Below are positions 18,426 through 38,238 of a stretch of DNA of 64,000 bases, in pieces (position 1 is the first letter of the stretch; every line of letters begins with the position of its first letter). The DNA is taken from positions 221,449 through 285,448 of the forward strand of contig NZ_LMEX01000003.1 in NCBI RefSeq assembly GCF_001426645.1, written 5' to 3'. A model generated the notes under the pieces. It was given only the letters and a program-made list of their open reading frames with translations, did no database searches and had not been told where the DNA came from. The translations under genes and the position numbers were made by a program. Source of the stretch: Rhodanobacter sp. Root480. Its GTDB lineage: Bacteria > Pseudomonadota > Gammaproteobacteria > Xanthomonadales > Rhodanobacteraceae.

Positions 18426-19577
18426 TCAGAACTTCACCACCTCGACCCAGTTCGCATCCTGGCCGACGGGATAACGGCCGTTGAGTTTCAGCGCGCCGCT
18501 GGTGGGGTCGATGTCGAACACGGAGATGTGATCCGACTTCTCGCCCGAGCAGATCAGGTATTTGCCGTCGGGCGTGATGGCGAAGCCGCGCGGCTGCTTC
18601 TCGGTGGGGTAGGTGCCGACCAGGGTCAGCGCGCCGCTGGCCTTGTCGACCTTGAGCGCGCTCAGCACGCTGCTGGTGCGTTCGGAGGTGTAGAGGAACC
18701 TGCCGTCCGGCGTGACGTGGATATCGGCGGCCCAGATATCGTTGCTGGTGTCCGCGTGCGGCCGCTGCGCCGGCGTGGGGTTGCGCACGAAGCGCGGCGC
18801 GCCGGGTACCAGGGTGGTGTCGGCCGGCATCGCGCTGGTGACGGCCTGCTGGGTGAGCCGGCCGGTGGCGGGATCGAGCGCGTAGGTGATCACCTTGTCT
18901 TGCAGTTCGTCGAGCACGTAGACGTAGCGGTCGTCAGGTGAAAAGGCGATATGGCGTGCGCCCAGCCCGGTCGGCAACTGCAATGCGGGCGGATCATTCG
19001 CGGTGACCTTGCCGGTGTTCGCATCGAAGCGGTACTGGAACACCTTGGCACCGCCGAGGGTCTGCGCGAACAGGTAGCGGTTGCTGTTGTCGATGTGCAC
19101 CGAGTGGGTGTTGCGGTCGGTCTTCAGCGTCTGCGTGGGTTGGTCGGCCAGCTTGCCCGCGTGGATCGGCGTCACCGTCACCACGTCGTCGTCGTAGGAT
19201 GAGGCGAACAGGTAGTTGCCGGTCCGGTCCAGCGAGATATAGGCCATCGGATGCCACACCGGCGATTGCGAAACCTTGTCCAGGCCCCCGGTGGCGGGAT
19301 CGATGGTGAAGGTCTGCACCGCGTGGGTGGGCTTGTCCACGCTGGCGTACAGGTAGCGATGGTCGGGACTGACTGCCATCGGCATCACGTTGCCGCCCGC
19401 GGTCACGGTGGCGCCGGGGGTGAGCTTGCCGGTCTGCTCGGCCAGCTGGTACGTCGAGATGGTGCCGTCGGTGGCGTTGGAGACGTACACGTAGGTGGTG
19501 GCATGCAGCGTCGGCAAACCGAAGGCCAGCAGCAAGGCCGAGCCGCGCAGCAAGGTCGTGCGGATGATGGGTGTCAT
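18426..19577 (-). CDS. Secreted lactonase-family beta-propeller protein
   Basis: 383-residue protein with a signal peptide (MTPIIRTTLLRG... to about residue 26) and a seven-bladed propeller built of repeats such as YVYVSNATDGTISTYQ and HVTPDGRFLYTSER. The family is the 6-phosphogluconolactonase (Pgl/YbhE) type. Cytoplasmic members hydrolyse 6-phosphogluconolactone; an exported copy cannot easily meet that substrate, so its role is uncertain. It is the last gene of the minus-strand run from 24268, about 145 bases beyond the amidase stop. The ATG at 19577 has GGAGAGGA before it. Confidence 0.8.
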   Translation of the reverse strand: MTPIIRTTLLRGSALLLAFGLPTLHATTYVYVSNATDGTISTYQLAEQTGKLTPGATVTAGGNVMPMAVSPDHRYLYASVDKPTHAVQTFTIDPATGGLDKVSQSPVWHPMAYISLDRTGNYLFASSYDDDVVTVTPIHAGKLADQPTQTLKTDRNTHSVHIDNSNRYLFAQTLGGAKVFQYRFDANTGKVTANDPPALQLPTGLGARHIAFSPDDRYVYVLDELQDKVITYALDPATGRLTQQAVTSAMPADTTLVPGAPRFVRNPTPAQRPHADTSNDIWAADIHVTPDGRFLYTSERTSSVLSALKVDKASGALTLVGTYPTEKQPRGFAITPDGKYLICSGEKSDHISVFDIDPTSGALKLNGRYPVGQDANWVEVVKF

Positions 19578-19722
19578 GGCGTCCTCTCCAGGTAGGGTGA
19601 CTCGTCGTGTCGAACCAGCATGCGAGGGTAGCGCACGCGGTCCGCGCAGGTGTGCCTGCGCAACGCAATCGCCACAGGGTTGTGGATTCCCACGCCGATC
19701 CGGCTCGACGCCGTGGTGGGAG

Positions 19723-20493
19723 TCAGTGCGCGTCGTCGCCGCGTTCGATCGTCTGCACCAGGCTGTAGAGGACGCGCAGATCGGTCGCATCCAGCGTCTC
19801 GCCCTCGATGCCGCGATAGTGGTGGTGGAACGCGCGTACCGCGGCGGCGCGATCGTCCAGCGGGTAACCCACCAGCGCCAGCGCCATCCAGGGGTCGAAG
19901 CCGGCCGGCGGGTCGATCAGCGGCGCCCGCGGCCACAGCCCGTAACCGGCGGCGGCCAGTTGCTGCCAGGGAAACAGTGAGCCGGGATCGACCTTGCGGG
20001 TGGGCGCGAAATCCTCGTGCCCCACGATCTGCGTGGGCGGGATGTGCAGCCGTGTGGTGAGGTCGGCGAGCAGCCGCAGCAGGCCGGCGATCTGCGGCTG
20101 GGCGAACGGGGTGGCGCCATCGTTGTCCAGCTCGATGCCGATCGAGGCGGAGTTGATGTCGGTGATCGTGCCCCAGCGTCCCGGTCCGCCGTGCCAGGCG
20201 CGCAGCTGGTCGGACACCAACTGGTAGATGTGCCCGTCGGCGCCGATCAGGTAATGCGCGCTCACCGGACCGCCGCTGTTGGCGGTGCGCAACGTGTGCA
20301 GGCTCTGTTGCACCGAATCCTGGTCGGTGTAATGCAGCACGATCAGCACCGGCCGGCGGATGTCGTGGTTGGGCGAGGGCACCCAGGTGGCCAGCGGGTT
20401 GCGCGGCGGCGCATGGGCGCAGGCGGCCAGCAGCGCGATCAGGAGCAGCAGCGTGGCGCTACGCCAGCGTCGGGAATCGAAGGGCCTGGGCAT
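19723..20493 (-). CDS. N-acetylmuramoyl-L-alanine amidase, AmiD-like lipoprotein
   Basis: Zinc amidase (Amidase_2 / PGRP fold) that cuts between N-acetylmuramic acid and L-alanine of murein or anhydro-muropeptides. The 256-residue precursor has a lipobox LLAAC with Cys25, so it is predicted to be lipid-anchored in the envelope. Zinc ligands are visible in VLHYTD and in GHEDFAPTRKVDPG; AHYLIG and the C-terminal helical peptidoglycan-binding-like tail match E. coli AmiD. It lies 64 bases downstream of the VanX-like gene on the same strand. Release of free murein peptides fits the neighbouring dipeptidases. Confidence 0.87.
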   Translation of the reverse strand: MPRPFDSRRWRSATLLLLIALLAACAHAPPRNPLATWVPSPNHDIRRPVLIVLHYTDQDSVQQSLHTLRTANSGGPVSAHYLIGADGHIYQLVSDQLRAWHGGPGRWGTITDINSASIGIELDNDGATPFAQPQIAGLLRLLADLTTRLHIPPTQIVGHEDFAPTRKVDPGSLFPWQQLAAAGYGLWPRAPLIDPPAGFDPWMALALVGYPLDDRAAAVRAFHHHYRGIEGETLDATDLRVLYSLVQTIERGDDAH

Positions 20494-20557
20494 CGATGCA
20501 TCATCCCGTCGACGGCGCGGAAAGCGCGTGAATCGGCATGGCGATCTCATGCGGCGC

Positions 20558-21250: not shown

Positions 21251-21254
21251 CGCC

Positions 21255-21392: not shown

Positions 21393-21405
21393 AAAAAGAA
21401 GTAGC

Positions 21406-22986
21406 TCATGGGCAATCTCCCACGCGTTCGAAGCGCAGGTCTTCATAGTCCGAACTGAAGTCGCCCTGCGGGTCGAGCTTGGCCATGCGCATCATGGTTG
21501 GCCCATCACCGGGGGTACGGAAGTCCATCCACGCATCGGGATCGACGCCATCATCGTCCCAGTGCACGAAATAGCGGGTACCCAGCCGCATCACCGTGCC
21601 GGCCAGACGCGGCGATTTCTTCGCGGTGAAACGCACCTGGCCGCCGCGTGGACACACGGCGGCCTCGCCCAGCCAGGGATCGCGATAGATGCCGGTGAAC
21701 GCCGCCAGTTCGGCCGGTCCGACGGGTTGGCGCGCCGAGGTGTCCGGCGCCGAAGCCGACGCCGGGCGTTGTTTCACCTGCTCGTCCAGCGCGTCCGCGT
21801 ACCACGCCACGCCGCGGCGTTCTTGCGGTGCGGTGAAGTGTTTCATCAGCACTTCGCCCAGCACCGTGCGCGCGTCCTCCGCCTCGCCATTGATCATGAA
21901 CACGAAACCGCTCTGCCGGTCGGGCAGCAGCGCCAGCATCGAATACATGCCGCCGAGCGTACCGGTATGCCACACGGCCCATGCGCCATCGATGTCGGCC
22001 ATGCGCCAGCCGTAGCCGTAGGCCATCACATGCGTGTTGTCCCACTGGCGACGCTGGGTGGATACGGGGATCAGCATGTGCGGCGCCTGCAGCGTGGTGC
22101 GCTGCGGCCACGACAGCCACTGCAATTGCGCCGGCGTGGGCACCAGCCAGTTGCGCGCCCAAACCAGCATGTCGGTGAGATCGCAGCGGATGCCGCCGGC
22201 CGGCGCCGAGGTGATCGCGGGAATGGTGGCGCCGTCCTCGTGCATGGGCACGTTGCGGCCGTCGTGGCGGTAATGCGGTTGCGCCACGTTGCCCACGCCG
22301 TCGCGATTCCAGCTGCCGACCTGGCAGCGGTCCAGCCCCAGCGGTTCGAACACCTCGCGCCGCATCAACGTCTCGTACGGCGCGCCGCCGGCCGCGGCGG
22401 CCACTTCGCCGGCCACCACGTAGAGCAGGTTGTCGTACTGGTATTGCGAGCGAAAGCTGTAACCCGGCTCGATATAGCGCAGCGCGTGGATGATGTCGGC
22501 GCGGGTGAATGTGTTCGGTTCCGGCCACAGCATCAGGTCGCCGCCGCCCTCGGGCAGGCCGCTGGAATGGGTGAGCAGGTCGGCCACGCGCATATTGGCG
22601 GTGACCCAGGCGTCGTGCATGCGGAACTGCGGCAGGTACCTCGTCACCGGATCGTCCCAGCGCAGCTTGCCCTGATCCACCAGCCGGCCCAGCAGGGCGG
22701 TGGTCATCGCCTTGCTGTTGGAGGCGATCTTGAACAGCGTTTGCGGGGTGATCTTTTCGCCCGACCCGGCCACGGTTTCGCCCGCGGTGCGGGTGTAGAC
22801 GACCTTGCCGTTTTCGATCACGCCGACGGCAATGCCGGGCAGGCGGTAGCGGGCGATCGCCGCATCGACGATGGGGTCGTAGGTGGCACGGGAACGCGCA
22901 GAGGAAACTTCGGCGTGTACCGGCACCAGCGCCGCGGCCAGCCCAAGAAGCGCGGCGGCGAGGAAGGCGCGGGAATATCGAAGCAT
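21406..22986 (-). CDS. Secreted class-C beta-lactamase-fold serine hydrolase
   Basis: Peptidase S12 family (DD-peptidase, D-aminopeptidase or esterase), 526 residues. A signal peptide covers about residues 1-25. The catalytic SxxK is S-N-S-K (Ser89, Lys92), the second motif is YDN in QYQYDNLLY, and the third is HTG in place of KTG. A C-terminal domain of about 130 residues follows. An ATG three codons upstream (22995) inside a palindromic repeat is an equally possible start. Its place between the VanX-like and M19 dipeptidase genes favours a D-amino-acid peptide substrate; antibiotic hydrolysis is not suggested by the context. Confidence 0.85.
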   Translation of the reverse strand: MLRYSRAFLAAALLGLAAALVPVHAEVSSARSRATYDPIVDAAIARYRLPGIAVGVIENGKVVYTRTAGETVAGSGEKITPQTLFKIASNSKAMTTALLGRLVDQGKLRWDDPVTRYLPQFRMHDAWVTANMRVADLLTHSSGLPEGGGDLMLWPEPNTFTRADIIHALRYIEPGYSFRSQYQYDNLLYVVAGEVAAAAGGAPYETLMRREVFEPLGLDRCQVGSWNRDGVGNVAQPHYRHDGRNVPMHEDGATIPAITSAPAGGIRCDLTDMLVWARNWLVPTPAQLQWLSWPQRTTLQAPHMLIPVSTQRRQWDNTHVMAYGYGWRMADIDGAWAVWHTGTLGGMYSMLALLPDRQSGFVFMINGEAEDARTVLGEVLMKHFTAPQERRGVAWYADALDEQVKQRPASASAPDTSARQPVGPAELAAFTGIYRDPWLGEAAVCPRGGQVRFTAKKSPRLAGTVMRLGTRYFVHWDDDGVDPDAWMDFRTPGDGPTMMRMAKLDPQGDFSSDYEDLRFERVGDCP

Positions 22987-23065: not shown

Positions 23066-24268
23066 TCAATGCTTTGCTGCATCGCGCTCCACCTCGCCCC
23101 ATACGCGCAACAGGTTGCCGCCCCACAGCTTGGCGATGTCGGCGTCGCTGAAACCGTGCCGGCGCATCGCGGTGGTGAGGTTGCGGGTTTCGCTGGCGTC
23201 GGCCCAGCCGGTGATGCCGCCACCGCCGTCGAAGTCCGACGCGATGCCGACATGGTCGATGCCAGCGACCTGCACCATGTGCCGGATCTGCTCCAGGTAC
23301 TCGTCCAGCGTGGGCAGCGGATGCTGCTGCTGGATCTGCGCCATGCCGACGGCCATCGCGGGCAGGTAGTCGTGTTTGTCGCTGTCGTACTTCGTGTCGC
23401 CGGCGGCTTTCGCCACGGCCTTCTGCAGTTTTTCCTCGGCGGCTTCGCGGGCCGGGTCGTGCTTCAGGAACTCCTTGTACGCCACCGCCTGGATCACGCC
23501 GCCCTTGGCGGCGATCGCGCGCAGCAGGTCGTCGGGCAGGTTGCGCGGGTGATCGAGCACGGCGCGCGCGCCGGAGTGCGAGGCGATGATCGGCGCCGTC
23601 GACACCTTCAAGGCGTCGCGCACGCAGGCGTCGGAAGCGTGCGATACGTCCACCATCATGCCCAGCTGGTTGGCCCGCTTCACCACGGCGCGGCCGAAGT
23701 CGCTCATGCCGGTATCGGCGGCGTCGTTCATCGCCGGCTCGCCGTGTCTGGTATCGGGCTGCGAACTGGTGCACAGGTCGTTGTCGCCGACATGCACCAG
23801 GCCTACCGAGCGCGCGCCGCGATCGAACGCGGCGTCCAGGCGATGGATGTCGTGGCCGAGCGAGTAGGCGTTTTCGATCGCGATGGTCGCCGAGAGCAGG
23901 CCGGCGTGATGGTTGTCCATCAACTGCTCGGGTGTGGTGGCCAGGCGGATGCGGTCGGGATACATCATCAGCATGCGGCCGATGCCGTCGTATTTCTGGC
24001 TGGCCTGTTTCACCGCCTGAGCGTAGCCGGCGGCGTCGAGCTTGTGTTGGGGCACCCAGACCACGAAGAACGCCGCGTCCAATCCGCCGCGCTCCATCTT
24101 GCCCAGGTCAACCAGCAGCGGCGTGGGCTTGCCCACGTCGAAGCGCGGCTCGCCCATGTAGTCGAACGGGATGTCGACGTGGCTGTCGATGGTGATCGGC
24201 GGGTCCTGCGCCTGGGCGGCGCCCGCAGCCAGTGCGGCGAGGATGGCGAGGCTTGCGATCGTCTTCAT
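23066..24268 (-). CDS. Secreted M19 (renal/membrane-type) dipeptidase
   Basis: Zinc dipeptidase of 400 residues with a signal peptide (MKTIASLAILAALAAGAAQA). The metal-binding HxD reads SHVD near residue 29; VDVSHAS and ASHSGARAVLDHPRN carry the other family ligands, and HVGIASDFDGG is the C-terminal signature. M19 enzymes cleave L-L and L-D dipeptides and tolerate a C-terminal D-residue, which suits the final cleavage of murein dipeptides. It is separated from the upstream TonB receptor by a strong terminator, so it probably has its own promoter in 24269-24350. Confidence 0.9.
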   Translation of the reverse strand: MKTIASLAILAALAAGAAQAQDPPITIDSHVDIPFDYMGEPRFDVGKPTPLLVDLGKMERGGLDAAFFVVWVPQHKLDAAGYAQAVKQASQKYDGIGRMLMMYPDRIRLATTPEQLMDNHHAGLLSATIAIENAYSLGHDIHRLDAAFDRGARSVGLVHVGDNDLCTSSQPDTRHGEPAMNDAADTGMSDFGRAVVKRANQLGMMVDVSHASDACVRDALKVSTAPIIASHSGARAVLDHPRNLPDDLLRAIAAKGGVIQAVAYKEFLKHDPAREAAEEKLQKAVAKAAGDTKYDSDKHDYLPAMAVGMAQIQQQHPLPTLDEYLEQIRHMVQVAGIDHVGIASDFDGGGGITGWADASETRNLTTAMRRHGFSDADIAKLWGGNLLRVWGEVERDAAKH

Positions 24269-24406: not shown

Positions 24407-27400
24407 TCAGAAATCCAGGCTCACCGTGAGCTGGGCGAAGCGCGGCGACTGGAAGCGGATACCTTCGCCGAAGGTGTCGCTGGTGCTGTCGGAAATGGAC
24501 GTCTGCAGGTCCTGGTTCACGCCCAGCGTGCGCTGCGAGTTGAGCAGGTTGTACACCGCGAACTTGGCCTTGATGCGGCCGTCGGTGCCGATCGGCTTCT
24601 GCCAGCTGATGCTTGCGCCCAAGTCGTAGTTCCATGGCGTGCGGCCGTACTTGCCGCGCGGCGAGCGTTCGTACACGCGCTGCTCGGACGGATACGGCAC
24701 CGGGTCGCCATCGGCGTCCACCTCGCCCGGGATGAAGCCGCAGTTCTGCACGCAGATGTAATAGCTGTGGTACGAGGTGGCGTCGTACGGATTGCCGCTG
24801 CCGAAGCCGGTGACCGGCGTGCCGGAGAGGATCTGCAGATCCGCGCCGAGTTGCCACTGCGGCGTGATGGCATAGGTGCCGCGCAGCTTGATCTGGTGGC
24901 GGCGGTCGTTGGGCAGGTAGCCATCGCCGCCGAAGTTGACCCACGGGTCGTCGAAGTTCTCGGTGCGGCCGGTGTCGTCGAAGTTGGTGTCCGAGTTGAC
25001 CGGGCCTTCCGCATTGCCGCGGCTCCACGATAGCGTGTACGACGCGTTGAACGCCCACTTGTCGTCCCACGCGCGGTCGATCTGGAATTCCATCGCGGTG
25101 TAGGTGCGCTTGGGCTTCACCCAGCCGCGCTCGCCCAGGTAGTTGCCGTCGCTGTCGTACATCGCCCAGCCGTGCTTGGCGGTGTCGATGTCCACGTAGC
25201 CGTCGGGCGTGCCGTCGCAGTTGGTGTCGCCCCAGATGGAGACCTTGGAGCCGGGGTTGGCCATCACCCACTGCGTGCTCGGGTCGCCATCACTGTCGAG
25301 CAGCGGGCCGCAGGGCGTCTGCGTGATGCCCATGTCGTCGATGGCGTTGTGCAGGCGGCGGTAGGTGCCGCTGACGCCCCACGACCATTTGTCGTTGAGC
25401 ATCTGCTGGAAGCCCAGGATCAACTCGTCCTGGTAGACCTGGTCCATGTCGTGGTCGACCTCCGAGCGCAGGTCGCCCACGCTGCCGTCGCCCTGCGACA
25501 CATCCACGCCGCCCAGTTGCGGGCCCAGGATCGGCATCGCGTAGGGCGAGCCGTTGCGGTCGCGCGTTTCCCAGCCGTCGAACGCGTAGTAGGTGCGCTC
25601 GTCCAGCAGGCCGCCGGCCTGCTTGATGTTGATCACGTTGGCCACCGGCAGGTAATAGCGACCCAGGTTGCCGAACAGCTTGGTGGTGCCGTCGCCGTGC
25701 ATGTCCCACGAAAAGCCCAGCCGTGGCGCGATCATGTTTTCCATCTTGATGTAGCTGTCGCCATCGCCGGTCTTGTTGTCGAAGCCGTCGCGGCGCAGGC
25801 CCAGGTTCAGCAGCACGTTGGGCGTGACCTGCCAGTTGTCCTCGATGTAATAGGCGGAGTTGGTGGTTTCGAACGTGCCGGAGATTTCGTAGCGCCGGGC
25901 GCGCACGTAGCCGGTGTAGCCGGCCGGCACCACGCCGCCGCTGGGGTTGGGGATCGAGGAGCCGGGCGCGGCCTGGTAGACGTTGTAGTAGATCGCGCCG
26001 GGGCCGGGGTAGTAGCGGTCGTAATCGGAGGTGTTCTTCTCGCTGTCGTAGCCGAAGCGCAGCAGGTGATCGCCCAGCGTCCATTCGAAGTCGGCGCGCG
26101 CCTGTTTGCGCACGTCATTGCGTTGGCTCACCGCGCTGTTGGTGGTGCAACCGAGGCCGATGCCCGGCAGCGGGATGTCGCCATCGGTGGCCACGCGGTT
26201 GCACTCCAGGTCGCTGAGGCCACGGTTGAACGATTCGCGGTTGTTGCGGCCGTACATCAGCTTCATCGACAAGTCGTTGGTGAGGTAGCTGGTCCAGGTG
26301 AGGGCCCAGTTCTTGCCGCCGGTGTCGGTATAGATCTCGTTGGTCTTGCTGCCGATCGTGTCGGTGGCGTAGTCGTAGTCGTAGACGTCGCCGATGTTCT
26401 TGTCCTTGTCGGAGAACGCCATGGCGCTCAGCAGGTTGCTGTCGTTGACGTGCCAGTCGATGGTGGCGCCCCAGAAGCCGGTGTCCGAGCCGTTGCTGGT
26501 GAGCACGGTGCCGTCGTCGTTGGTGTTGCGCGGGGTGGCACCGCGCGCCTCGTACATCGCGAAGAAGAACAGCTTGTCCTTGACGATCGGGCCGGACACG
26601 TAGCCGTTGAGCTTGACCAGCGAGTCGCGGTCCTTGCCGGCGGTGATGTAGCGGGTGCCGTCCGCGCGGTAGTGGTCGTCGGCGCGCGAGTGCCAGTTGC
26701 CCGGCTCCAGCGTCATCTCGGTGCCGAAGTGGAAGTCGTTGGTACCCGAGCGCGTCACCGCGTTGATCACGCCGCCGGTGGTGCGGCCGAACTCCACCGA
26801 GTAGCCGCCGGTCTTGACCTGGAACTCCTGGTAGAACGCGAACGGCGCCGAGGAGAAGCCGTTGCGGTTGTAGAAGTCGGTGACATTGAGGCCGTTGACG
26901 TAGAACGAGTTCTCCGCCACCGACGAGCCGCCGAAGGAGATGCCGCCGAAACCCGCCACGCCCCGATTCACGCCCGGCGCCAGGATCGCCACCGAGGTGA
27001 TGTTCTGGTCCACCGGGATGCGGCTCAACTGCTCGCGGGTGACATTGGTGGCTGATTCGGTGGAACTCACGTCCACGCCGGGCAGGATGGTGCCGCTGAC
27101 GCTGATCGCTTCCAGCGCCGTCGCGTTGTCCGCGGCGCCCACGTTGACGGTGGTGGCATTGCCCAGGCTGACGGTGACATTCACCGGGTGCCCCACCGGT
27201 GCGCCGTCCTTGCTGCTCTCCAGCGTATAGGTGCCCACCGGCAGGAACGGGAAGCGGTAGTTGCCCTTGGCGTCGGCGGTGACCGAGCGGGTGAAGCCGG
27301 TGGCGGTGTTGTTCACCGTGATCACGGCACCGGCGGCGGTATGGCCCACCACGGAACCGTCGTTGCTGCCGGCAAAGGCGGCCGGCACGGCCAGCGACGC

Positions 27401-30446: not shown

Positions 30447-31850
30447 ATGATGCGATTGCCCTTACTCGTTTCCCTGCTGACGTTCGCCTTCGTTGCTACG
30501 CCGGTGCCGGCGCGTCAGGCACCATCCACCTTGACGGTGCCGCCCTCGGGCGTGCTGGGCGTGGGCGAGGCGCAATTGACGCCCGCGTTCTGGATCGGTC
30601 TGCAAGCCCAGCCGGACCGGGTGATCCTGGATAGCGCGGCGATCGCGGCGCAGAACGCGAAGCTGCTGCAGCGCGATCCGTCGATGCACGACCTGCGCGC
30701 CCTGCCGACCACACTGGATCGCGCGCGGGTGACGGGCTGGATCAAGCCGTTGTCCACGCTGCCCGCGCATCCGTTGTACGACGTCAATGGCAAGCCGGTA
30801 CCCGCCTCTGCGCTGCAGGCGATAGCTGCCAACGCGGCGCTGGACGCGATCCCCGCGCAACAGGAAACCCGCTATGGCCTGGTGGTGCACCGTGCCGCGC
30901 TGCGCGGCTTTCCCACCACGCTGCGGGTGTTCAGTTCCGACGACGACACCGACATCGACCGCTTCCAGGAGACTGCGGAATTCCCCGGCACTCCGGTGGT
31001 GATCGCGCACACCAGCGCCGACGGCAAGTGGCTGTTCGTGGTCAGCCCGCGCTACGCGGCGTGGACCGGGAAGGAGAACGTGGCCGAAGGCAGCGCGGCG
31101 CAAGTGTTCGGCTATGCCGACAAGAAACCGTATCGCGTGGTGACGGGCGCCAGCGTGCGCACCGTCTTCACCCGCGAGCAGCCGGCGCTGTCGCAGCTGC
31201 AACTGGACATGGGTACGCGCGTGCCGCTGCTGACCGGCCTGCCGCCGGACCAGCCGGTGAACGGGCAGACGCCATACACCTCGCACGTGCTGCAACTGCC
31301 GCTGCGCGGCGCCGACGGCAAACTGCAATTCGCTCCCGCGCTGCTGCAGAAAAACACCGACACCGCCGCCGACTACCTGCCGCTGACCCGCGCCAACCTG
31401 ATCCGCCAGGCGTTCAAGTTCCTGGGTGAACGCTACGGCTGGGGTCATGCCTACGACGGCCGCGACTGCAGCGGTTTCGTGTCGGACGTCTATCGCAGCA
31501 TGGGCGTGCAGATGCCGCGCAACACCAGCAAGCAGGCGATCAGCCCCGCGCTGGCGCATCGCGTGTTCACCGACAAGGACAGCCGCCAGGATCGCATCGC
31601 GGCGGCGTACGCGCTGCAGACGGGCGACCTCGTCTACATCCCCGGCCACGTGATGATGGTGCTGGGTCAGTTCAACGGCCAGCCGTACGTGATCCACGAC
31701 GTGGGCGGCATGAGTTACCGCAAGGCCGACGGCAGCCGGGCGCGGGTCAAGCTCAACGCGGTCTCGGTGACACCGCTGCTGCCGCTGCTGTTCAACGACA
31801 AGCAGACGTTTGTCGATCGCATGACCAGCATCGTGCGCATCCGCCCCTAG
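30447..31850 (+). CDS. Exported SH3-NlpC/P60 endopeptidase (gamma-D-Glu-diamino acid type)
   Basis: 467-residue cysteine peptidase with a signal peptide (MMRLPLLVSLLTFAFVATPVPA). Two SH3-like regions precede the C-terminal NlpC/P60 domain. The catalytic Cys341 is in YDGRDCSGFVSDVY and His401 in IPGHVMMVLG. The layout resembles YkfC-type enzymes that cut the gamma-D-glutamyl-diaminopimelate bond of murein peptides, releasing L-Ala-D-Glu. It lies 17 bases after the DUF819 gene and 50 before the epimerase gene, so product and next enzyme are encoded together. Tandem ATGs at 30447 and 30450 are both possible starts. Confidence 0.9.
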   Translation: MMRLPLLVSLLTFAFVATPVPARQAPSTLTVPPSGVLGVGEAQLTPAFWIGLQAQPDRVILDSAAIAAQNAKLLQRDPSMHDLRALPTTLDRARVTGWIKPLSTLPAHPLYDVNGKPVPASALQAIAANAALDAIPAQQETRYGLVVHRAALRGFPTTLRVFSSDDDTDIDRFQETAEFPGTPVVIAHTSADGKWLFVVSPRYAAWTGKENVAEGSAAQVFGYADKKPYRVVTGASVRTVFTREQPALSQLQLDMGTRVPLLTGLPPDQPVNGQTPYTSHVLQLPLRGADGKLQFAPALLQKNTDTAADYLPLTRANLIRQAFKFLGERYGWGHAYDGRDCSGFVSDVYRSMGVQMPRNTSKQAISPALAHRVFTDKDSRQDRIAAAYALQTGDLVYIPGHVMMVLGQFNGQPYVIHDVGGMSYRKADGSRARVKLNAVSVTPLLPLLFNDKQTFVDRMTSIVRIRP

Positions 31851-31900: not shown

Positions 31901-32998
31901 ATGAAGATCACCGACATCAAGTTCGGCATGTTGCGGGTGCCGCTGAAAACGCCGTTCAAGACCGCGTTGCGCACCGTCAACATGGTCGAGGACATCGTGG
32001 TGATGGTGCACACCGACAGCGGCAACGTCGGCTACGGCGAGGCGCCGGCCACGGCCGTGATCACCGGCGACACGCACGGCTCGATCATCGACGCGATCCG
32101 CCATTACATCTCGCCGCGGCTGATCGGCCAGGACATCGCCGACCTCAACCACCTCACCCAGCTGATCCAGGGCGCGATGGAGAAGAACACCAGCGCCAAG
32201 GCGGCGGTGGAAATCGCCATCTACGACCTGTGGGGTCAGCTCTACGGCGCGCCGCTGTACAAGTTGCTGGGCGGCGGCGACCCGGTGATCACCACCGACA
32301 TCACCATCAGTGTCGACTACATCGACAAGATGGTGGCCGACTCGGTGGAGGCGGTGGAGCGCGGCTTCGAGTCGCTGAAAATCAAGGTGGGCAAGGACAT
32401 CGGCGTGGACATCGACCGGGTCAAGGCGATCTACGCGGCGGTGGAAGGGCGCGCGTTGTTGCGGCTGGATGCCAACCAGGGATGGACGGCCAAACAGGCG
32501 GTGTATGCGCTGCAGACGCTGGAGGATGCCGGCATCAAGCTGGAGCTGATCGAGCAGCCGGTGAAGGCGCGCGACCTGGCCGGCATGCGCTACGTCACCG
32601 AGCGCGTGCACACACCGGTGATGGCCGACGAAAGCGTGTTCGGCCCGATGGAGGTGATCGAGCTGATCCGCCTGCGCGCGGCCGACATCATCAACATCAA
32701 GCTGATGAAAACCGGCGGCATCTCCAACGCGGTGAAGATCGCCGACATCGCCGCGATGTACGGCGTGGAATGCATGATCGGCTGCATGCTGGAAAGCAGC
32801 ATCAGCGTGGCCGCCGCCGTGCACGTGGCGGTGGCCAAGTCCGGCGTGATCACCAAGATCGACCTGGACGGCCCGTCGCTGTCGCAATTCAACCCGGTCG
32901 ACGGTGGGGTAACCTTCAACGAATCGGAGATCTCGGTGACGGACGCGCCCGGTCTGGGCATTCGCGAGATCAGGGGATTGGAGGAGATCGAAGCCTGA
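31901..32998 (+). CDS. L-Ala-D/L-Glu (dipeptide) epimerase
   Basis: Cytoplasmic enolase-superfamily enzyme of 365 residues that interconverts L-Ala-D-Glu and L-Ala-L-Glu during murein peptide breakdown. The acid/base lysines are Lys162 of the KIK motif (Lys160/162) and Lys267 in NIKLMKTGG. Metal ligands are in LDANQGW, IEQP and MADES. The DxD motif (Asp321, Asp323 in KIDLDGP) that binds the dipeptide amino group in known L-Ala-D/L-Glu epimerases is present, which supports this specificity over muconate cycloisomerase. The stop overlaps the regulator start (TGATG). No signal peptide was seen, so the dipeptide must be imported. Confidence 0.93.
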   Translation: MKITDIKFGMLRVPLKTPFKTALRTVNMVEDIVVMVHTDSGNVGYGEAPATAVITGDTHGSIIDAIRHYISPRLIGQDIADLNHLTQLIQGAMEKNTSAKAAVEIAIYDLWGQLYGAPLYKLLGGGDPVITTDITISVDYIDKMVADSVEAVERGFESLKIKVGKDIGVDIDRVKAIYAAVEGRALLRLDANQGWTAKQAVYALQTLEDAGIKLELIEQPVKARDLAGMRYVTERVHTPVMADESVFGPMEVIELIRLRAADIINIKLMKTGGISNAVKIADIAAMYGVECMIGCMLESSISVAAAVHVAVAKSGVITKIDLDGPSLSQFNPVDGGVTFNESEISVTDAPGLGIREIRGLEEIEA

Positions 32999-33855
32999 TG
33001 TCGCCACTGGTCAAAATCCGTTCCGAGCGCGACCGGATGTCGGCGGTGGAGCGGCGCATCGCCGACTTCATCCTGGAAAACGCGCAACTGCTGCGCGACT
33101 ACTCCTCGCAGCAGCTGGCGAATGCCCTGGGCATCAGCCAGTCCAGCGTGGTGAAGTTCACCCAGAAGCTGGGCTACAAGGGCTATCCCGACCTGAAGTA
33201 TTCCGTGGGCGAGGCCAATGCCCGCGCCGACAACGGCGATGCGCCGGCACATGCCGCAGCACCCGATGGCGAATCGCCCGGCGTGTTTGCCGGCAACCTG
33301 TGGCGGCGCAAGTCGGAGGCGGAGGAGGCCACCCGCCTGATCAATCCGGCGGAAACCATCGAGGCCGTCGCCGCCGCCATCGGCCAGGCCGGCCAGAACG
33401 GCAAGGTGTTCATCATCGGCCTGGGCGAGGACGACATCTACGCCCGCGGCTTTGCGCTGAAGCTGTCGCTGCTGGGCATCCTCACCGTGCACAACTTCGA
33501 CACCGCGCGGATGACCGCCAACGTGTCCGCCGCCAGCGCGGGCGACGTGCTGCTGGTGTTTTCCGAGCACGGCAACCATCAGGCCTTGTGCAAGATCGCG
33601 CGCTATTTCCGCGAACGCCGTGGCCAGGTGATCACCGTGACGCGGCACACCGCCAACCCGCTGCGCACGCTGGCCGACATCGCGTTGGTGGTGTCGGCGC
33701 ATGACGAGCTGCCGTACATCCAGCCGCTGCTGTACCAATCGGCGTTGCAGCACCTGCTCGATGGCCTGTTCGTCCTGCTGTGCGAAGGCCATGACGATCG
33801 CCATGCCCAATTGCTGGCCAACCTCGACCGCATCCAGCTGATGCTGGAGCCTTGA
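32998..33855 (+). CDS. MurR/RpiR-family transcriptional regulator
   Basis: 285 residues: an N-terminal RpiR helix-turn-helix (about 1-75, with YSSQQLANALGISQSSVVKFTQKLGYKGYPDLK) and a C-terminal SIS sugar-phosphate-binding domain (about 110-270, KVFIIGLGEDD ... DVLLVFSEHG). Family members sense phosphosugars such as MurNAc 6-phosphate. The gene is coupled to the epimerase by a one-base TGATG overlap and ends the DUF819 operon, so it most likely controls this operon and perhaps the divergent TonB-receptor operon. The true ligand is unknown. Confidence 0.92.
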   Translation: MSPLVKIRSERDRMSAVERRIADFILENAQLLRDYSSQQLANALGISQSSVVKFTQKLGYKGYPDLKYSVGEANARADNGDAPAHAAAPDGESPGVFAGNLWRRKSEAEEATRLINPAETIEAVAAAIGQAGQNGKVFIIGLGEDDIYARGFALKLSLLGILTVHNFDTARMTANVSAASAGDVLLVFSEHGNHQALCKIARYFRERRGQVITVTRHTANPLRTLADIALVVSAHDELPYIQPLLYQSALQHLLDGLFVLLCEGHDDRHAQLLANLDRIQLMLEP

Positions 33856-34024: not shown

Positions 34025-34792
34025 ATGCGCCACTTTTCCCTGCCGGCCGTTCTTGCGTTCGCCCTCATCGGTGCGGGTCATGCCGGCACGTCGAGCGTCC
34101 CCTGGCACGACGCCCGCCAGATGATCGTGGTGACCACCGCCGACTGGAACGCCGACCACGGCATCCTGCGTACGTTCGAACGAAGGCACGGCCGTTGGCA
34201 GATGGCGAAAAGCGCCATGCCGGTGACGATCGGCAAGAACGGCGCGGGCTGGGGCCTGGGGTTGAACGCGGCGCAAAGTGGCGGGCCGGTGAAGCGCGAG
34301 GGCGATAACCGCAGTCCGGCCGGTGTGTTCCGCATCGGCGAGGCCTTCGGCTACGCGGCCCATGCCGACACCGCCATGCCGTATCGCGCGCTGAGCGCCA
34401 GCGACTGGTGCGTCGATGTCAGCACCTCGCCGCAATACAACCGCATCGTCGACGCCAAGGTGGTGGGCGCCGCGGCGGTGAAAGGCGCCAGCGAGCCGAT
34501 GCGGCGCGACCTGCATTTCAATGGCGACCAGCGTTATCGCCAGGGCTTCGTGATCGAACACAACCCCGACGCGAAACCACAGGCGGGTAGCTGCATTTTT
34601 GCCCACCTGTGGAAATCACCCACCGCGGCCACCGCCGGTTGCACCGCGATGACGCCGGCGGTAATGCAGTCGCTGCTGGCCTGGCTGAAGCCGCAGGATC
34701 ATCCGGTGTTCGTGTTGTTGCCGCAGGCCGAGTACCGGCGTCTGCGTTCCAGCTGGCAATTGCCGGCGCTTGCCGCCGGGGAGGCGCGGTGA
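34025..34792 (+). CDS. YkuD-type L,D-transpeptidase/carboxypeptidase-like protein
   Basis: 255 residues with a signal peptide (MRHFSLPAVLAFALIGAGHAG). The motif SPTAATAGCTAM holds the catalytic Cys206 and matches the YkuD S-x-G-C signature with the upstream His in FAHLWKSP. Enzymes of this fold form 3-3 murein crosslinks, attach proteins, or trim peptides. No LysM domain is present. Its stop overlaps the start of the symporter gene (GTGA), so the two are coupled. In this neighbourhood a peptide-trimming role is as likely as crosslinking. Confidence 0.82.
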   Translation: MRHFSLPAVLAFALIGAGHAGTSSVPWHDARQMIVVTTADWNADHGILRTFERRHGRWQMAKSAMPVTIGKNGAGWGLGLNAAQSGGPVKREGDNRSPAGVFRIGEAFGYAAHADTAMPYRALSASDWCVDVSTSPQYNRIVDAKVVGAAAVKGASEPMRRDLHFNGDQRYRQGFVIEHNPDAKPQAGSCIFAHLWKSPTAATAGCTAMTPAVMQSLLAWLKPQDHPVFVLLPQAEYRRLRSSWQLPALAAGEAR

Positions 34793-36045
34793 ATGCCACC
34801 GCCCGCGTCCTGATCGGCCTCGCCGCCGGCGCGGTGATCGGCCTGGTGCTCGCAGGCTGGCATCCGGCCGTGGCCATCCAGGTGGCCAATGTAGTGCAGC
34901 CGATCGGTAAGCTGTGGTTGAACGCGTTGCAGATGACAGTGGTGCCGCTGGTATTGGCGCTGGTGGTGCTGGGCGTGAACACGGCCAGCGACGCGGCCGC
35001 TTCGGGCCGCATCGCGCGGCGCGCCATCGTGGTGTTCATCGTGGTGCTGACTGGCGGCGCGCTGTTTGCCGCGTTCGCCGCGCCTTTCGTGTTTTCGCTG
35101 TTTGCGCACGACCCGGCGCTGACCGCCGCGCTGGGCCACGCGGCCTTGCCCACGGCGGCGCAGGCCGCGCCGGTCGACTGGGTGGATGCGCTCACCGCCA
35201 TCGTGCCGCACAACGCGATCATGGCCGCGGCGCAAAGTGCGATGCTGCCGCTGGTGGTGTTTGCGCTGTTCCTGGGTTTTGCCTTGACCCATGTGTCGGT
35301 GGAGCGCCGCGCGTTGCTGCTGGATTTCTTCCAGGCGATTGCCGACGCAATGATCGTGATCGTGCGCTGGGTGTTGTGGGCGGCGCCGCTGGGCGTGTTC
35401 GCGCTGATCCTGTCGGTGTGCGCGCGTTCGGGTCTGGGCATGCTCAGCGCGCTGGGCATGTACGTGCTGGTGGAGTGCCTGCTGTACCTGTCGGTTACCG
35501 TGATGATGCTGCCGCTGGCGGTGGGTTTCGGTGGCGAGCGCTGGCGCCGCTTCGCGCTGGCGCTGGTGCCGCCGCAGGTGGTGGCGATCAGCACGCAGTC
35601 GTCGCTGGCCTCGCTGCCGGCGATGCTGGAAAGCGCCGATCGCCGGCTGGGCTATCCCAAGGCGGTGGCCGGCCTGGTGCTGCCGATGGCGGTCACCCTG
35701 TTTCGCCTCACTAGCCCGGTGCAGTACATGACCTCCGCCGCGTTCATCGCCTGGGCCTACGGCGTGGACCTGTCCACCGCGCAACTCATCGCCGGTGCGC
35801 TGCTGGCGGTGGTGGTGAGCCTGGGTTCGGTGGGCCTGCCCGGCCAGGTCACCTTCATCGCCACCAACCTGCCCGTGGCGCAGGCAATGGGCCTGCCACT
35901 GAGCCCGCTGGGCCTGATGCTGGCAGTGGACACCATCCCTGATGCGCTGGCCACGCTGGGCAATGTCACCGGCGACCTGACCGCCACCAGCGTGGTGGCG
36001 CGGCAGTCGCGCAACGACACGGCGCCGGCGCCCGATCTGCTGTAA
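34789..36045 (+). CDS. Dicarboxylate/amino acid:cation symporter (DAACS family)
   Basis: 418-residue inner-membrane secondary transporter of the SLC1/GltP/DctA fold with eight helices and two hairpins. The first re-entrant hairpin reads STQSSLASLPAML, and LGSVGLPGQ and the DTIPDALATLGNVTGD segment near the end form the substrate and cation site. Substrates of the family are glutamate, aspartate, or C4-dicarboxylates. The start is GTG at 34789 (ATG at 34793 is out of frame), overlapping the preceding stop. Uptake of glutamate released from murein peptides would suit the context but is inference. Confidence 0.88.
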   Translation: MNATARVLIGLAAGAVIGLVLAGWHPAVAIQVANVVQPIGKLWLNALQMTVVPLVLALVVLGVNTASDAAASGRIARRAIVVFIVVLTGGALFAAFAAPFVFSLFAHDPALTAALGHAALPTAAQAAPVDWVDALTAIVPHNAIMAAAQSAMLPLVVFALFLGFALTHVSVERRALLLDFFQAIADAMIVIVRWVLWAAPLGVFALILSVCARSGLGMLSALGMYVLVECLLYLSVTVMMLPLAVGFGGERWRRFALALVPPQVVAISTQSSLASLPAMLESADRRLGYPKAVAGLVLPMAVTLFRLTSPVQYMTSAAFIAWAYGVDLSTAQLIAGALLAVVVSLGSVGLPGQVTFIATNLPVAQAMGLPLSPLGLMLAVDTIPDALATLGNVTGDLTATSVVARQSRNDTAPAPDLL

Positions 36046-36271: not shown

Positions 36272-37546
36272 ATGACCGACCACCCCGTCCCCTCCGACGA
36301 AACGCTGCAGGACCATCTCCGCGCGCTGCTGCCGCGGCTGGAGGCGCTGTACACCGATATCCACGCGCATCCGGAATTGTCGATGCAGGAAACCCGCACC
36401 GCGGGCCTGGCCGCCGAGCACCTGCGCGCGGCCGGCTATGAAGTCACCACCGGCGTCGGCAAGACCGGCGTGGTCGGCCTGTTGCGCAATGGCAACGGGC
36501 CGGTGGTGATGCTGCGCGCGGACATGGATGCGCTGCCGGTGCAGGAAGCCACCGACGCGCCGTACGCCAGCAAGGTCACGGCGGTCGATCACGAAGGCAA
36601 CACCGTGCCGGTGATGCACGCCTGCGGCCATGACATGCACGTCGCCTGGCTGGTCGGCGCCACCACCTTGATGGCGCAGCATCGCGACAGTTGGCAGGGC
36701 ACGCTGATGGCGGTGTTCCAGCCGGCGGAGGAAACCGCGCAAGGGGCGCAGGCGATGATCGACGACGGCCTGTTCCAGCGTTTCCCGAAACCCGACGTGG
36801 TGCTGGGCCAGCACGTGATGGTGGGCCCGGCGGGTGCCATCGGCGGGCGCAAGGGCGTGATCACCTCGGCCGCCGACAGCCTGCAGATCCGCCTGTTCGG
36901 GCGCGGCGCGCACGGCTCGATGCCGCAGGCCAGCATCGACCCGGTGGTGATGGCGGCATCGACGGTGCTGCGGCTGCAGACCATCGTGGCGCGCGAGCTG
37001 GCGCCGACCGAGGCGGCGGTGCTCACGATCGGCTCGCTGCAGGCCGGCACCAAGGAAAACGTGATCCCCGACGAGGCCATCATCAAGCTCAACGTGCGCA
37101 CCTTCGACGAAGGCGTGCGCAAGCGCGTGCTGGCCGCGATCACCCGCATCGTCAACGCCGAGGCGGCGGCCTCGGGTGCGCCGAAGCCGCCGGAAATCAC
37201 GCCGCTGGACAATTACTCGTTGGTGACCAACGACGACGACGCCACCACCAGGGTGGTCGATGCGTTCCGCAAGCACTTCCCGGCCGGGCGCATCCGCGAG
37301 ACCGGGCCCACCTCGGCCAGCGAGGATTTCGGCTCGTTCGGTGCCGCGTGGAAGGTGCCGTCGGTGTTCTGGTTCGTCGGCAGCACCGACCCGGACGTCT
37401 ACGCGAAGGCGAAGGTCGAGAACCGGCTCAACGAAATCCCGACCAACCACAACCCGCGCTTCCTGCCGGTACTCCACCCGACCCTGGAGGTCGGCGTGGA
37501 AACGCTGATGGTGGCCGCGCGGGCGTGGTTGTCGACAGCACGCTGA
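36272..37546 (+). CDS. M20 family amidohydrolase (hippurate/N-acyl-amino-acid type)
   Basis: Metal-dependent amidohydrolase, 424 residues, apparently cytoplasmic. Metal-site motifs are MLRADMDALP, HACGHDMH and FQPAEE; the dimerisation domain starts near GRGAHGSMPQ. It belongs with N-acyl-L-amino acid hydrolases such as hippurate hydrolase and AbgB. AGGAGTG precedes the ATG at 36272. The 226-base gap before it contains no feature I can name. The TRIC gene starts two bases after its stop, so the two form an operon. Confidence 0.88.
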   Translation: MTDHPVPSDETLQDHLRALLPRLEALYTDIHAHPELSMQETRTAGLAAEHLRAAGYEVTTGVGKTGVVGLLRNGNGPVVMLRADMDALPVQEATDAPYASKVTAVDHEGNTVPVMHACGHDMHVAWLVGATTLMAQHRDSWQGTLMAVFQPAEETAQGAQAMIDDGLFQRFPKPDVVLGQHVMVGPAGAIGGRKGVITSAADSLQIRLFGRGAHGSMPQASIDPVVMAASTVLRLQTIVARELAPTEAAVLTIGSLQAGTKENVIPDEAIIKLNVRTFDEGVRKRVLAAITRIVNAEAAASGAPKPPEITPLDNYSLVTNDDDATTRVVDAFRKHFPAGRIRETGPTSASEDFGSFGAAWKVPSVFWFVGSTDPDVYAKAKVENRLNEIPTNHNPRFLPVLHPTLEVGVETLMVAARAWLSTAR

Positions 37547-37548
37547 GC

Positions 37549-38238
37549 ATGGAACACGCGACGCTCGCCACCCAGGCCGTGCTGCCCATCCTGCTGCAGC
37601 TGCTGGATCTGGGCGGCACCTTCGTCTTCGCCATCAGCGGCGCGATGGTCGCGGTCAGGCATCGGCTCGACATCTTCGGCGTGCTGGTGCTGGCATTCGC
37701 GGCGGGCAATGCGGGCGGCATCACGCGCGACCTGATGATCGGCGCGGTGCCACCGGCGGCGATTGCCGACCTGAAGTATGCCGGCGTGTCCGCGCTGGCC
37801 GGGTTGATCACCTTCTTCTGGTATCCGATGACCAACCGCCTGCGCAATGACGTGTTGTGGCTGGATGCGGTCGGGCTGGCGTTCTTCGCCGTAGCCGGCG
37901 CGCAGAAGGCGCTGGCCCACGGCATCGATCCGGTGATGGCGGCGCTGCTGGGCATGGTGACCGGCATCGGCGGCGGCATGCTGCGCGACGTGCTGGTGTC
38001 CGGCATCCCCACCGTGTTGCGCGCCGACCTGTATGCGCTGGCGGCGCTGGCCGGCGCCAGCGTGGTGGTGAGCGCCCACCTGCTGCACCTCTCGCCGATG
38101 CTGGCCGCCGTGGCCGGCGGCGGCGTCTGTTTCGCGCTGCGTTTCATGGCGATCCGGCATGGCTGGCACCTGCCGACCTCACGGCCGGCGCCTGCATCGG
38201 ATGCGCCGCACCACCGGCACCACGATCAGGATCGCTGA
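37549..38238 (+). CDS. TRIC-type cation channel (UPF0126/YicG family)
   Basis: 229-residue inner-membrane protein with seven predicted helices in two repeats. Each repeat carries the family motif: GNAGGITRDLMIGAVPP near residue 55 and GIGGGMLRDVLVSGIP near residue 145. Bacterial members are trimeric potassium-permeable channels; some are implicated in glycine uptake. The last 20 residues are His/Asp-rich and probably cytoplasmic. Translation is probably coupled to the amidohydrolase two bases upstream. Confidence 0.88.
   Translation: MEHATLATQAVLPILLQLLDLGGTFVFAISGAMVAVRHRLDIFGVLVLAFAAGNAGGITRDLMIGAVPPAAIADLKYAGVSALAGLITFFWYPMTNRLRNDVLWLDAVGLAFFAVAGAQKALAHGIDPVMAALLGMVTGIGGGMLRDVLVSGIPTVLRADLYALAALAGASVVVSAHLLHLSPMLAAVAGGGVCFALRFMAIRHGWHLPTSRPAPASDAPHHRHHDQDR

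What the first reader, a model, noticed from the sequence alone, without database searches (positions are those of the whole stretch)
18426..38238. Candidate locus for scavenging murein peptides
Seen: within 20 kb there are an AmiD-like amidase lipoprotein, VanX-like D-Ala-D-Ala dipeptidase, S12 serine hydrolase, M19 dipeptidase, NlpC/P60 endopeptidase, YkuD enzyme, L-Ala-D/L-Glu epimerase, MurR/RpiR regulator, a large TonB receptor, an exported transglutaminase-like protein, DUF819 and DAACS membrane proteins. Known: the amidase, gamma-D-Glu-Dap endopeptidase, dipeptide epimerase and dipeptidase are successive steps of murein peptide breakdown. Inference: because most are exported and a TonB receptor is included, the locus may take up murein peptides from outside (dead cells or prey), not only recycle its own wall. 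I do not know of a described TonB-dependent system of this composition.
Basis: partly seen in the sequence, partly recalled or inferred. Interest (0 to 1): 0.82.

Follow-up and report, generated by a model that had tools for sequence, protein, structure and literature searches.

The report
TonB-linked cell-wall peptide feeding locus
A conserved, apparently jointly controlled set of genes in Rhodanobacter-like soil bacteria and their relatives looks built to take bacterial cell-wall peptides apart and use them as food, probably including fragments from other bacteria taken up through an outer-membrane pump.

Summary
They form two divergent units, TG-TBDT-M19-S12-VanX-(AmiD) and DUF819-NlpC-epimerase-RpiR-YkuD-SDF. 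The unit is real: among 151 order genomes, 27 of 30 with the exported transglutaminase-like gene (TG) have the NlpC gene within 1.5 kb on the opposite strand. In 80 named TG loci, NlpC, epimerase, RpiR and TBDT recur in 75, 74, 73 and 68; lactonase, M20 and glycine transporter in 1 each, so these do not belong. A 13-base element in the shared promoter gap occurs once per genome in 25 of those 27. Natural fusions (amidase-S12, TG-YkuD), a DAP decarboxylase in several loci without TBDT, and MurNAc-utilisation genes beside homologues in another family point to peptidoglycan. NlpC resembles whole-muropeptide lysins (DvLysin/PnpA), not the free-peptide enzyme YkfC; Mpl and an S66 carboxypeptidase lie elsewhere in the genome. 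DUF819 is predicted to have a CitS-type fold. Peptidoglycan-peptide catabolism is well supported. Uptake of foreign fragments by the receptor is likely but unproven: 21 of 46 NlpC regions of the order lack an orthologous receptor. Ten paper searches listed no account of this locus.

The parts
19723..20493 (-). AmiD-like N-acetylmuramoyl-L-alanine amidase, lipoprotein-like N-terminus (facultative member)
   Evidence: PF01510 109 bits; lipobox-like LAAC; present in 24 of 80 named TG loci; amidase fused to S12 in L164
20558..21250 (-). VanX-like D-Ala-D-Ala dipeptidase (M15), probably exported; start codon uncertain
   Evidence: PF01427 136 bits; NF033115 184 bits, below its 320 cut-off; 63 of 80 loci
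21406..22986 (-). S12 serine hydrolase with DUF3471, exported; AmpH-like DD-carboxypeptidase/endopeptidase or D-peptidase (inferred)
   Evidence: PF00144 214 bits; best NCBIfam AmpH 90.6 bits, cut-off 266; 67 of 80 loci at 40% identity or more
23066..24268 (-). M19 membrane-dipeptidase family, exported
   Evidence: PF01244 301 bits; PDB relative 3b40 6e-60; 42 of 80 loci
24407..27463 (-). TonB-dependent outer-membrane receptor (CarboxypepD_reg + Plug + OMP_b-brl_4 barrel; 'Oar-like' is recalled)
   Evidence: 68 of 80 loci at 40% identity or more
27514..29112 (-). exported transglutaminase-like cysteine enzyme (TG), triad C391-H428-D444
   Evidence: PF01841 55 bits; triad invariant in 27 of 27 and 108 of 108 aligned; AlphaFold model pLDDT 82, best PDB match 3isr E 9e-14
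29148..29217 (.). conserved divergent promoter/operator region: TGTGTAACACG (29148-29158), GTCAATAATTTAT (29172-29184), inverted repeat GAAT-N4-TATTC (29205-29217)
   Evidence: positions; GTCA-N5-TTAT in 99 of 100 intergenic regions; one exact 13-base copy per genome in 25 of 27 TG+NlpC genomes; of 92 distinct sequences chosen by the core, GTGTARC lies at -23 in 72 and -24 in 10, a degenerate inverted repeat in 51
29278..30429 (+). DUF819 inner-membrane transporter, predicted CitS-type sodium-symporter fold
   Evidence: PF05684 256 bits; AlphaFold pLDDT 84.8, best PDB match CitS 5a1s E 1e-5, query TM 0.54-0.67 over the 15 CitS chains; 52 of 80 loci
30447..31850 (+). [quoted passage not shown]
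   Evidence: PF12913 and PF00877; best PDB 3m1u 3e-37, 6sqx 2e-24, YkfC 3h41 7e-10; Asn359 at the YkfC Asp256 position; 75 of 80 loci
31901..32998 (+). cytoplasmic L-Ala-D/L-Glu epimerase, YkfB type
   Evidence: PDB 1jpm/1tkk 1e-103; residues R24, K160, K162, D321, D323 invariant in 143 of 143; 74 of 80 loci
32998..33855 (+). RpiR-type regulator (HTH_6 + SIS)
   Evidence: PF01418, PF01380; 73 of 80 loci
34025..34792 (+). exported YkuD-fold enzyme, likely L,D-carboxypeptidase or transpeptidase
   Evidence: PF03734 27.4 bits over cut-off 23.4; H194 in 111 of 111 and C206 in 110 of 111, the other a gap; YkuD fused to TG in L164; 67 of 80 loci
34789..36045 (+). SDF (DAACS) dicarboxylate/amino-acid symporter
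   Evidence: PF00375 269 bits; best NCBIfam GltP 142 bits, cut-off 638; 61 of 80 loci
18426..19577 (-). 7-bladed lactonase-like protein; NOT part of the locus
   Evidence: PF10282 261 bits; 1 of 80 loci
36272..38238 (+). M20 peptidase and glycine-transporter-family protein; NOT part of the locus
   Evidence: each 1 of 80 loci

Best explanation
This is a conserved, jointly regulated catabolic locus for peptidoglycan stem peptides. Exported enzymes (NlpC of the whole-muropeptide lysin type, S12, YkuD, TG, VanX, M19, in some species AmiD) cut muropeptides or sacculus fragments at the periplasm or outside: NlpC at the gamma-D-Glu-DAP bond; the amidase frees L-Ala-D-Glu from the sugar; S12, YkuD and VanX trim D-Ala and D-Ala-D-Ala; M19 splits dipeptides. 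The TonB receptor most likely brings fragments released from other or dead cells across the outer membrane; DUF819 (CitS-type fold) most likely carries the acidic dipeptide L-Ala-D-Glu inward, where the YkfB-type epimerase makes L-Ala-L-Glu for cleavage to amino acids; SDF takes up glutamate or other acidic amino acids. RpiR and a single shared promoter region control both operons. Shown here: families, catalytic residues, conservation, fusions, the promoter element, no NamZ match and no MurQ over cut-off, and Mpl and an S66 carboxypeptidase gene elsewhere in the genome. Inferred: every substrate, the direction of TonB transport, the RpiR ligand and site, joint regulation.
For: Pfam and PDB assignments. 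Co-occurrence in 151 order genomes: TG in 30, NlpC in 47, epimerase in 45; TG and NlpC together in 27, always within 1,485 bp and divergent. Named loci: counts of 80. Outside genes drop to 1 of 80. Diaminopimelate decarboxylase LysA (TIGR01048, 467 and 476 bits, cut-off 298, in L095 and L130; same Pfam pair in L103, L128, L038) sits where TBDT is missing. Fusions amidase+S12 and TG+YkuD in L164, from another family of the class. In that family's 37 NlpC regions, NamZ in 13, MurK-MurQ-like homologues in 14, alanine racemase in 5, DUF819 in 12, RpiR in 20. An f8 locus, L078, has an S66 L,D-carboxypeptidase and no YkuD hit. NlpC has Asn, not Asp, at the YkfC Asp256 position in 151 of 157, and its relative PnpA cuts GlcNAc-MurNAc-peptides (PMC7860986 passages). 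The own genome has Mpl (619 bits) and S66, so cytoplasmic recycling seems catered for separately. Shared promoter element.
Against: No substrate is shown for any protein. The receptor is optional: TBDT at 40% identity or more is found in 25 of 46 NlpC regions of the order and 68 of 80 named TG loci; seven of the 12 TG loci without it (L095, L103, L107, L109, L125, L128, L130) keep TG with NlpC and/or the epimerase. DUF819 is not found in 28 of 80. Most order genomes (104 of 151) gave no NlpC match. TBDTs are numerous in this group (recalled; PMC1790865 seen only in the listing), so the TBDT hits in 14 of 37 regions of the other family could partly be chance, and the receptor-like proteins of L078, L074 and L163 match CarboxypepD_reg but no plug or barrel model at E 1e-4. 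Oar, a TBDT, exports a protease (PMC11658791 passages). VanX, S12, epimerase and SDF stay below their NCBIfam cut-offs.
Confidence: 0.55

Rival explanations
1. Recycling or catabolism of the cell's own wall only: the exported enzymes clear turnover peptides in the periplasm and DUF819 returns L-Ala-D-Glu; the TonB receptor has an unrelated or helper role.
For: Enzymes look periplasmic or lipoprotein; small peptides can pass porins (recalled); 21 of 46 NlpC regions of the order have no orthologous TBDT and several of them still hold VanX, epimerase and YkuD; a LysA gene would use DAP from any source.
Against: Mpl and S66 are present elsewhere in the genome; NlpC lacks the free-L-Ala signature of recycling enzymes; where TG is present TBDT is there in 68 of 80 loci; NamZ and MurK-MurQ-like homologues beside the relatives in another family.
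Confidence: 0.28
2. The TBDT works outward: it secretes TG or another hydrolase of the locus, as Oar does with the protease PopC in Myxococcus, to attack neighbours' walls.
For: Same kind of domain make-up as recalled for Oar-like proteins (likeness to Oar itself not tested); TG lies next to TBDT in the maps; PopC secretion by Oar (PMC11658791, passages).
Against: No protein-export test; in L164 and the f8 loci the receptor-like gene lies beside the amidase rather than TG; most TBDTs import (recalled).
Confidence: 0.1
3. The receptor belongs to another substrate (siderophore, glycan, protein peptide) and only happens to be held in the same transcription unit.
For: Receptor is less tightly conserved than the enzymes: pairwise identity correlates with TG at r 0.52 versus 0.84 for TG-NlpC, and two receptor types (53 and 12 of 65) cut across genera.
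Against: Present in 68 of 80 TG loci across two orders; a receptor of the same domain make-up lies in the rearranged cluster of L164.
Confidence: 0.07

Closest known systems
Bacillus ykfABC / YkfB-YkfC murein-peptide pathway (PMC2954226, passages read)
   Same: gamma-D-Glu-DAP endopeptidase + L-Ala-D/L-Glu epimerase; in B. cereus the paper proposes an exported YkfC with dipeptide import to a cytoplasmic YkfB
   Different: NlpC here lacks the Asp256 signature and is nearer to lysins; Gram-negative, with TonB receptor, DUF819, TG, YkuD, VanX, S12, M19 and RpiR
DvLysin / PnpA / EcgA four-domain NlpC/P60 enzymes (PMC7860986, outline and passages read)
   Same: best sequence matches in PDB (3m1u, 6sqx); exported; PnpA cleaves gamma-D-Glu-mDAP in muropeptides and foreign sacculi
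   Different: not described there as part of a catabolic operon in the passages seen; whether the enzyme here leaves the cell is unknown
Tannerella forsythia muropeptide scavenging (AmpG operon ending in murQ; PMC5388701, passages read)
   Same: use of external peptidoglycan fragments; MurK/MurQ-like homologues occur beside relatives of this locus in another family
   Different: inner-membrane permease AmpG; no TonB, epimerase or dipeptide hit in that text
TonB carbohydrate-utilisation loci of Xanthomonas and Caulobacter GlcNAc receptors (PMC13046382 passages; PMC1790865 seen in listing only)
   Same: TBDT + regulator + enzymes + inner-membrane transporter in one locus
   Different: substrate there is sugar; here the enzymes are for peptide
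E. coli murein recycling (AmpG, LdcA, Mpl, MpaA, YcjG; recalled)
   Same: same peptide intermediates
   Different: cytoplasmic and aimed at reuse; this genome carries Mpl and an S66 gene apart from the locus

Membership tests
YkfC / dipeptidyl-peptidase VI (free N-terminal L-Ala enzymes) | Asp at BcYkfC position 256 | tested here: not met
   Asn359 aligned; Asn in 151 of 157, Asp in 6
YkfC / dipeptidyl-peptidase VI (free N-terminal L-Ala enzymes) | conserved SH3b tyrosine (Tyr118) | not tested
   SH3b region too divergent in the alignment obtained
DvLysin/PnpA-type lysins | SH3b domain plus C-terminal NlpC/P60 with Cys-His, closest to 3m1u/6sqx | tested here: met
   C341 and H401 in 157 of 157
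DvLysin/PnpA-type lysins | cleavage of sugar-linked muropeptides | not testable with these tools
   needs enzyme assay
L-Ala-D/L-Glu epimerase (YkfB) | catalytic lysines, metal acids and substrate residues R24, D321, D323 (roles recalled) | tested here: met
   (143 of 143) for R24, K160, K162, D321, D323; D190, E218, D243, K267 read in the window protein only
L-Ala-D/L-Glu epimerase (YkfB) | NCBIfam equivalog cut-off | tested here: not met
   NF041118 256 of 500, NF011708 107 of 343
D-Ala-D-Ala dipeptidase VanX | M15 domain over Pfam cut-off | tested here: met
   PF01427 135.9 over 27
D-Ala-D-Ala dipeptidase VanX | VanX equivalog cut-off | tested here: not met
   NF033115 184 of 320
TonB-dependent receptor | plug and beta-barrel domains | tested here: met
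   PF07715, PF00593, PF25183 over cut-off
TonB-dependent receptor | substrate is a murein peptide | not testable with these tools
   needs binding or uptake assay
MurR (MurNAc-6P regulator) | partner etherase MurQ in the genome | tested here: not met
   best hit 23.7 bits, cut-off 302
CitS-type symporter | fold (of a predicted model) | tested here: met
   query TM 0.54-0.67, 14-17% identity; transport not tested
YkuD enzymes | catalytic His and S/T-x-G-C | tested here: met
   H194 111/111, T203 111/111, G205 111/111, C206 110/111 with one gap

The most novel reading that the evidence does not exclude
A first described TonB-dependent peptidoglycan-peptide utilisation locus: a receptor that imports cell-wall fragments of dead or prey bacteria, feeding an exported peptide-dismantling kit that includes a transglutaminase-fold wall peptidase partnered (and in one genome fused) with a YkuD enzyme, and a DUF819 importer for L-Ala-D-Glu.
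Probability: 0.42. Interest if true: 0.8.

Novelty: new variant of a known kind. Interest (0 to 1): 0.62.

Why it matters
How Gram-negative bacteria take other bacteria's cell wall across the outer membrane as food is, as far as I recall, poorly known, and DUF819 is named in Pfam as of unknown function. This locus names a receptor, an inner-membrane carrier and an exported enzyme set that can be tested in harmless soil bacteria, proposes a role for DUF819 and for a transglutaminase-like family without a solved sequence relative, and offers a single promoter element through which the whole system could be measured.

Tried and rejected
Rejected: chance clustering; membership of the lactonase, M20 and glycine transporter; MurNAc-6P as the RpiR ligand via MurQ; YkfC-type specificity.

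Led nowhere: PDB sequence search for TG and YkuD gave no credible relative; paper search for DUF819 with peptidoglycan gave one unrelated paper; the promoter tool gave only weak sites; the Xanthomonas paper that names a dipeptide epimerase does so only in a table. Searches for a published account of such a locus; none listed one. The library lacks most subscription papers, so this is not proof that none exists.

Caveats on counts: the 46 order regions and the 80 named loci (the best 80 of 291 TG relatives) overlap in species; the named set was chosen by TG, so only one search tests co-occurrence without that bias; several contigs are truncated. One search's TBDT count of 72 includes four hits near 30% identity and its S12 count of 71 includes weak second S12 hits, so (40% identity, 80 bits) is used instead. 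One search scored at most four candidates per genome, so its 4 of 369 is a lower bound; a TG relative outside the order was later seen in L164. For one search, sequences of 0.7 times the query length or less, or 2 times or more, were dropped. For one search, TBDTs of 40% identity or less or outside 900-1100 aa were dropped. For one search, intergenic regions of 30 bases or less, or 500 or more, were dropped; its control shuffled single bases only. One search kept only sequences matching the core motif and removed identical ones, so conservation of the core there is by construction. One search's queries include genes taken from two of the 37 regions themselves (L163, L164), and no minimum identity was set.

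Full report
What is there. The window has 66.8% G+C and belongs to a Rhodanobacter-like genome: its TG protein is 94% identical (best segment) to that of Rhodanobacter fulvus Jip2 (lineage Lysobacterales, Rhodanobacteraceae). Gene calls by codon composition, Pfam and homology give, leftward from about 29.1 kb: TG, TBDT, M19, S12, VanX, AmiD, then a lactonase; and rightward from 29.3 kb: DUF819, NlpC, epimerase, RpiR, YkuD, SDF, then M20 and a glycine transporter. TG, TBDT, M19, S12, VanX, NlpC and YkuD have strongly hydrophobic N-termini, AmiD also a lipobox; epimerase and RpiR have no comparable one (a simple hydropathy measure).

Is it a unit? NlpC was found in 47 of 151 genomes of the order, TG in 30 and epimerase in 45. 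TG and NlpC coincide in 27, always on one contig within 1,485 bp on opposite strands; epimerase coincides with NlpC in 45 of 47, 43 of these 45 within 6 kb (Fisher p 4.5e-14 and 1.7e-36, without correction for kinship). Among the 80 best of 291 TG relatives in named genomes (Rhodanobacter, Dyella, Luteibacter, Frateuria, Lysobacter, Luteimonas, Pseudoxanthomonas and others, and Steroidobacter of another order), at 40% identity or more: NlpC 75, epimerase 74, RpiR 73, TBDT 68, S12 67, YkuD 67, VanX 63, SDF 61, DUF819 52, M19 42, AmiD 24; lactonase, M20 and glycine transporter 1 each. In the 46 order regions fetched around NlpC, epimerase 42, VanX 35, YkuD 32, TG 26, S12 26, TBDT 25, RpiR 25, SDF 20, DUF819 15, M19 14: NlpC with epimerase, YkuD or VanX often stands without TG, TBDT and RpiR, so these three look like a module that mostly comes and goes together. 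In a class-wide sample TG was found in 4 of 369 genomes, all in this order (at most four candidates scored per genome).

One promoter. The TG-DUF819/NlpC gap carries GTCAATAATTTAT; the spaced pair GTCA-N5-TTAT occurs in 99 of 100 gaps, against at most 6 for any such pair in five shuffles (gaps from overlapping species sets). In the window the 13-mer lies at 29172-29184 with no second copy even at one mismatch. Of the 27 genomes with TG and NlpC, 25 have exactly one exact copy, in this gap; 12 of the other 124 genomes have one or two, and the reversed control pattern rings in 13 genomes (counted by hand from its table). In the 46 order regions an exact copy is present in 24 of 26 with TG and 0 of 20 without; 13 of 80 named loci have no exact copy. 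Around it, in 92 distinct sequences chosen by the core, GTGTARC stands at -23 in 72, at -24 in 10 and is not found in 10; a degenerate inverted repeat 32-33 bases downstream is found in 51 of 92. Read on the minus strand, the core gives TTGACC and the upstream box TACACA 17 bp on, a plausible promoter towards TG; this and RpiR binding are inference.

What the enzymes do. The epimerase is nearest to B. subtilis YkfB with its key residues (roles recalled). NlpC is nearest to DvLysin and PnpA. YkfC uses Asp256 for the free L-Ala amine (PMC2954226, passages); here that place is Asn in 151 of 157 sequences. PnpA cuts the gamma-D-Glu-mDAP bond of sugar-linked muropeptides, is secreted, and attacks sacculi of two Vibrio species but not those of several other bacteria (PMC7860986, outline and passages). 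That DvLysin itself is a lysin is taken from there and from memory; the original 2015 paper was not held. TG has an invariant Cys-His-Asp triad and its model (pLDDT 82) is nearest to a putative cysteine protease 3isr, with a weak match to pseudomurein endoisopeptidase 8z4f, E 0.04. DUF819 models as a CitS-type symporter, which suits an acidic substrate; its exact substrate is inference.

Independent support for peptidoglycan as substrate. (b) In L164, from another family of the class, amidase and S12 are one protein, TG and YkuD another, in a cluster with TBDT, RpiR, epimerase, NlpC, VanX, NamZ, a kinase-SIS protein that I read as MurK-MurQ-like, and an SSF transporter. (c) In that family NlpC was found in 37 of 147 genomes; in the 37 regions read, epimerase 28, RpiR 20, SSF 15, TBDT 14, MurK-MurQ-like homologue 14, NamZ 13, YkuD 13, DUF819 12, AmiD 12, VanX 10, S66 9, alanine racemase 5, TG 1 (E 1e-12, within 20 kb, some contigs short). 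(d) In f8 loci a distant receptor-like gene (24-30% identity in 6 of 8 loci; CarboxypepD_reg but no plug or barrel model in L078 and L074) lies beside amidase, NlpC and epimerase, with an S66 L,D-carboxypeptidase in L078 and an alanine racemase in L074.

Own wall or others'? The own genome has Mpl (619 bits, cut-off 389) and an S66 protein, so cytoplasmic recycling seems served separately; it has no NamZ match and no MurQ over cut-off, so here the peptide, not MurNAc, would be the food. The exported lysin-like NlpC and the receptor favour external fragments. Against this, 21 of 46 order regions and 12 of 80 TG loci have no orthologous receptor, seven of these 12 while keeping TG with NlpC and/or the epimerase, and Oar, another TonB-dependent protein, exports a protease (PMC11658791, passages). 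I put peptidoglycan-peptide catabolism at about 0.9 and import of foreign fragments by the receptor at about 0.55; the whole statement is scored 0.55.

Novelty. Ten paper searches listed no account of such a locus. The passages shown of a review of TonB transporters (12 of 16, no hit for muropeptide) and of a Caulobacter recycling paper mention no murein-peptide receptor. Its pieces are known kinds; the combination, the conservation across two orders and the shared promoter appear new, hence a new variant of a known kind.

Noticed in passing
window 29148-29217; same gap in most TG loci of L034-L064 and L080-L158: Strongly conserved divergent promoter element, one exact core copy per genome in 25 of 27 TG+NlpC genomes; candidate RpiR operator and promoter pair.
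   Followed up: yes
L095:11548-12834, L103:11271-12800, L128:11241-12737, L130:3186-4454, L038:9866-11338: Orn/DAP decarboxylase-family gene (LysA by TIGR01048 in L095 and L130) takes the place of TBDT in loci without the receptor; no signal peptide evident in L095 and L130.
   Followed up: partly
L164:3556-6015 and L164:7073-9199: Natural fusions: amidase + peptidoglycan-binding + S12 (819 aa), and transglutaminase-like + YkuD (708 aa).
   Followed up: partly
TBDT genes of L085, L099, L100, L108, L111, L112, L115, L129, L132, L146, L152, L157: A second receptor type (about 47-50% identical to the window's) occurs in otherwise similar loci across genera, as if receptors are swapped.
   Followed up: partly
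L142, L147, L151, L159: TG outside the NlpC/epimerase locus: beside an M61 glycyl-aminopeptidase (scanned in L142 and L151), with YkuD and SDF in L151 and L159 and a distant TBDT in L147, L151 and L159.
   Followed up: partly
L169, L171, L174, L176, L183, L184, L189, L190: NlpC, with epimerase or DUF819, beside SSF, MurK-MurQ-like and NamZ homologues: likely fuller peptidoglycan-feeding clusters in another gammaproteobacterial family.
   Followed up: partly
window 17857-18474 and upstream of 21250: Repeated stretches reading SPACGRR / LAPSPASGG lie between lacI and lactonase and just before vanX; they look like a dispersed short repeat and make the vanX start uncertain.
   Followed up: no
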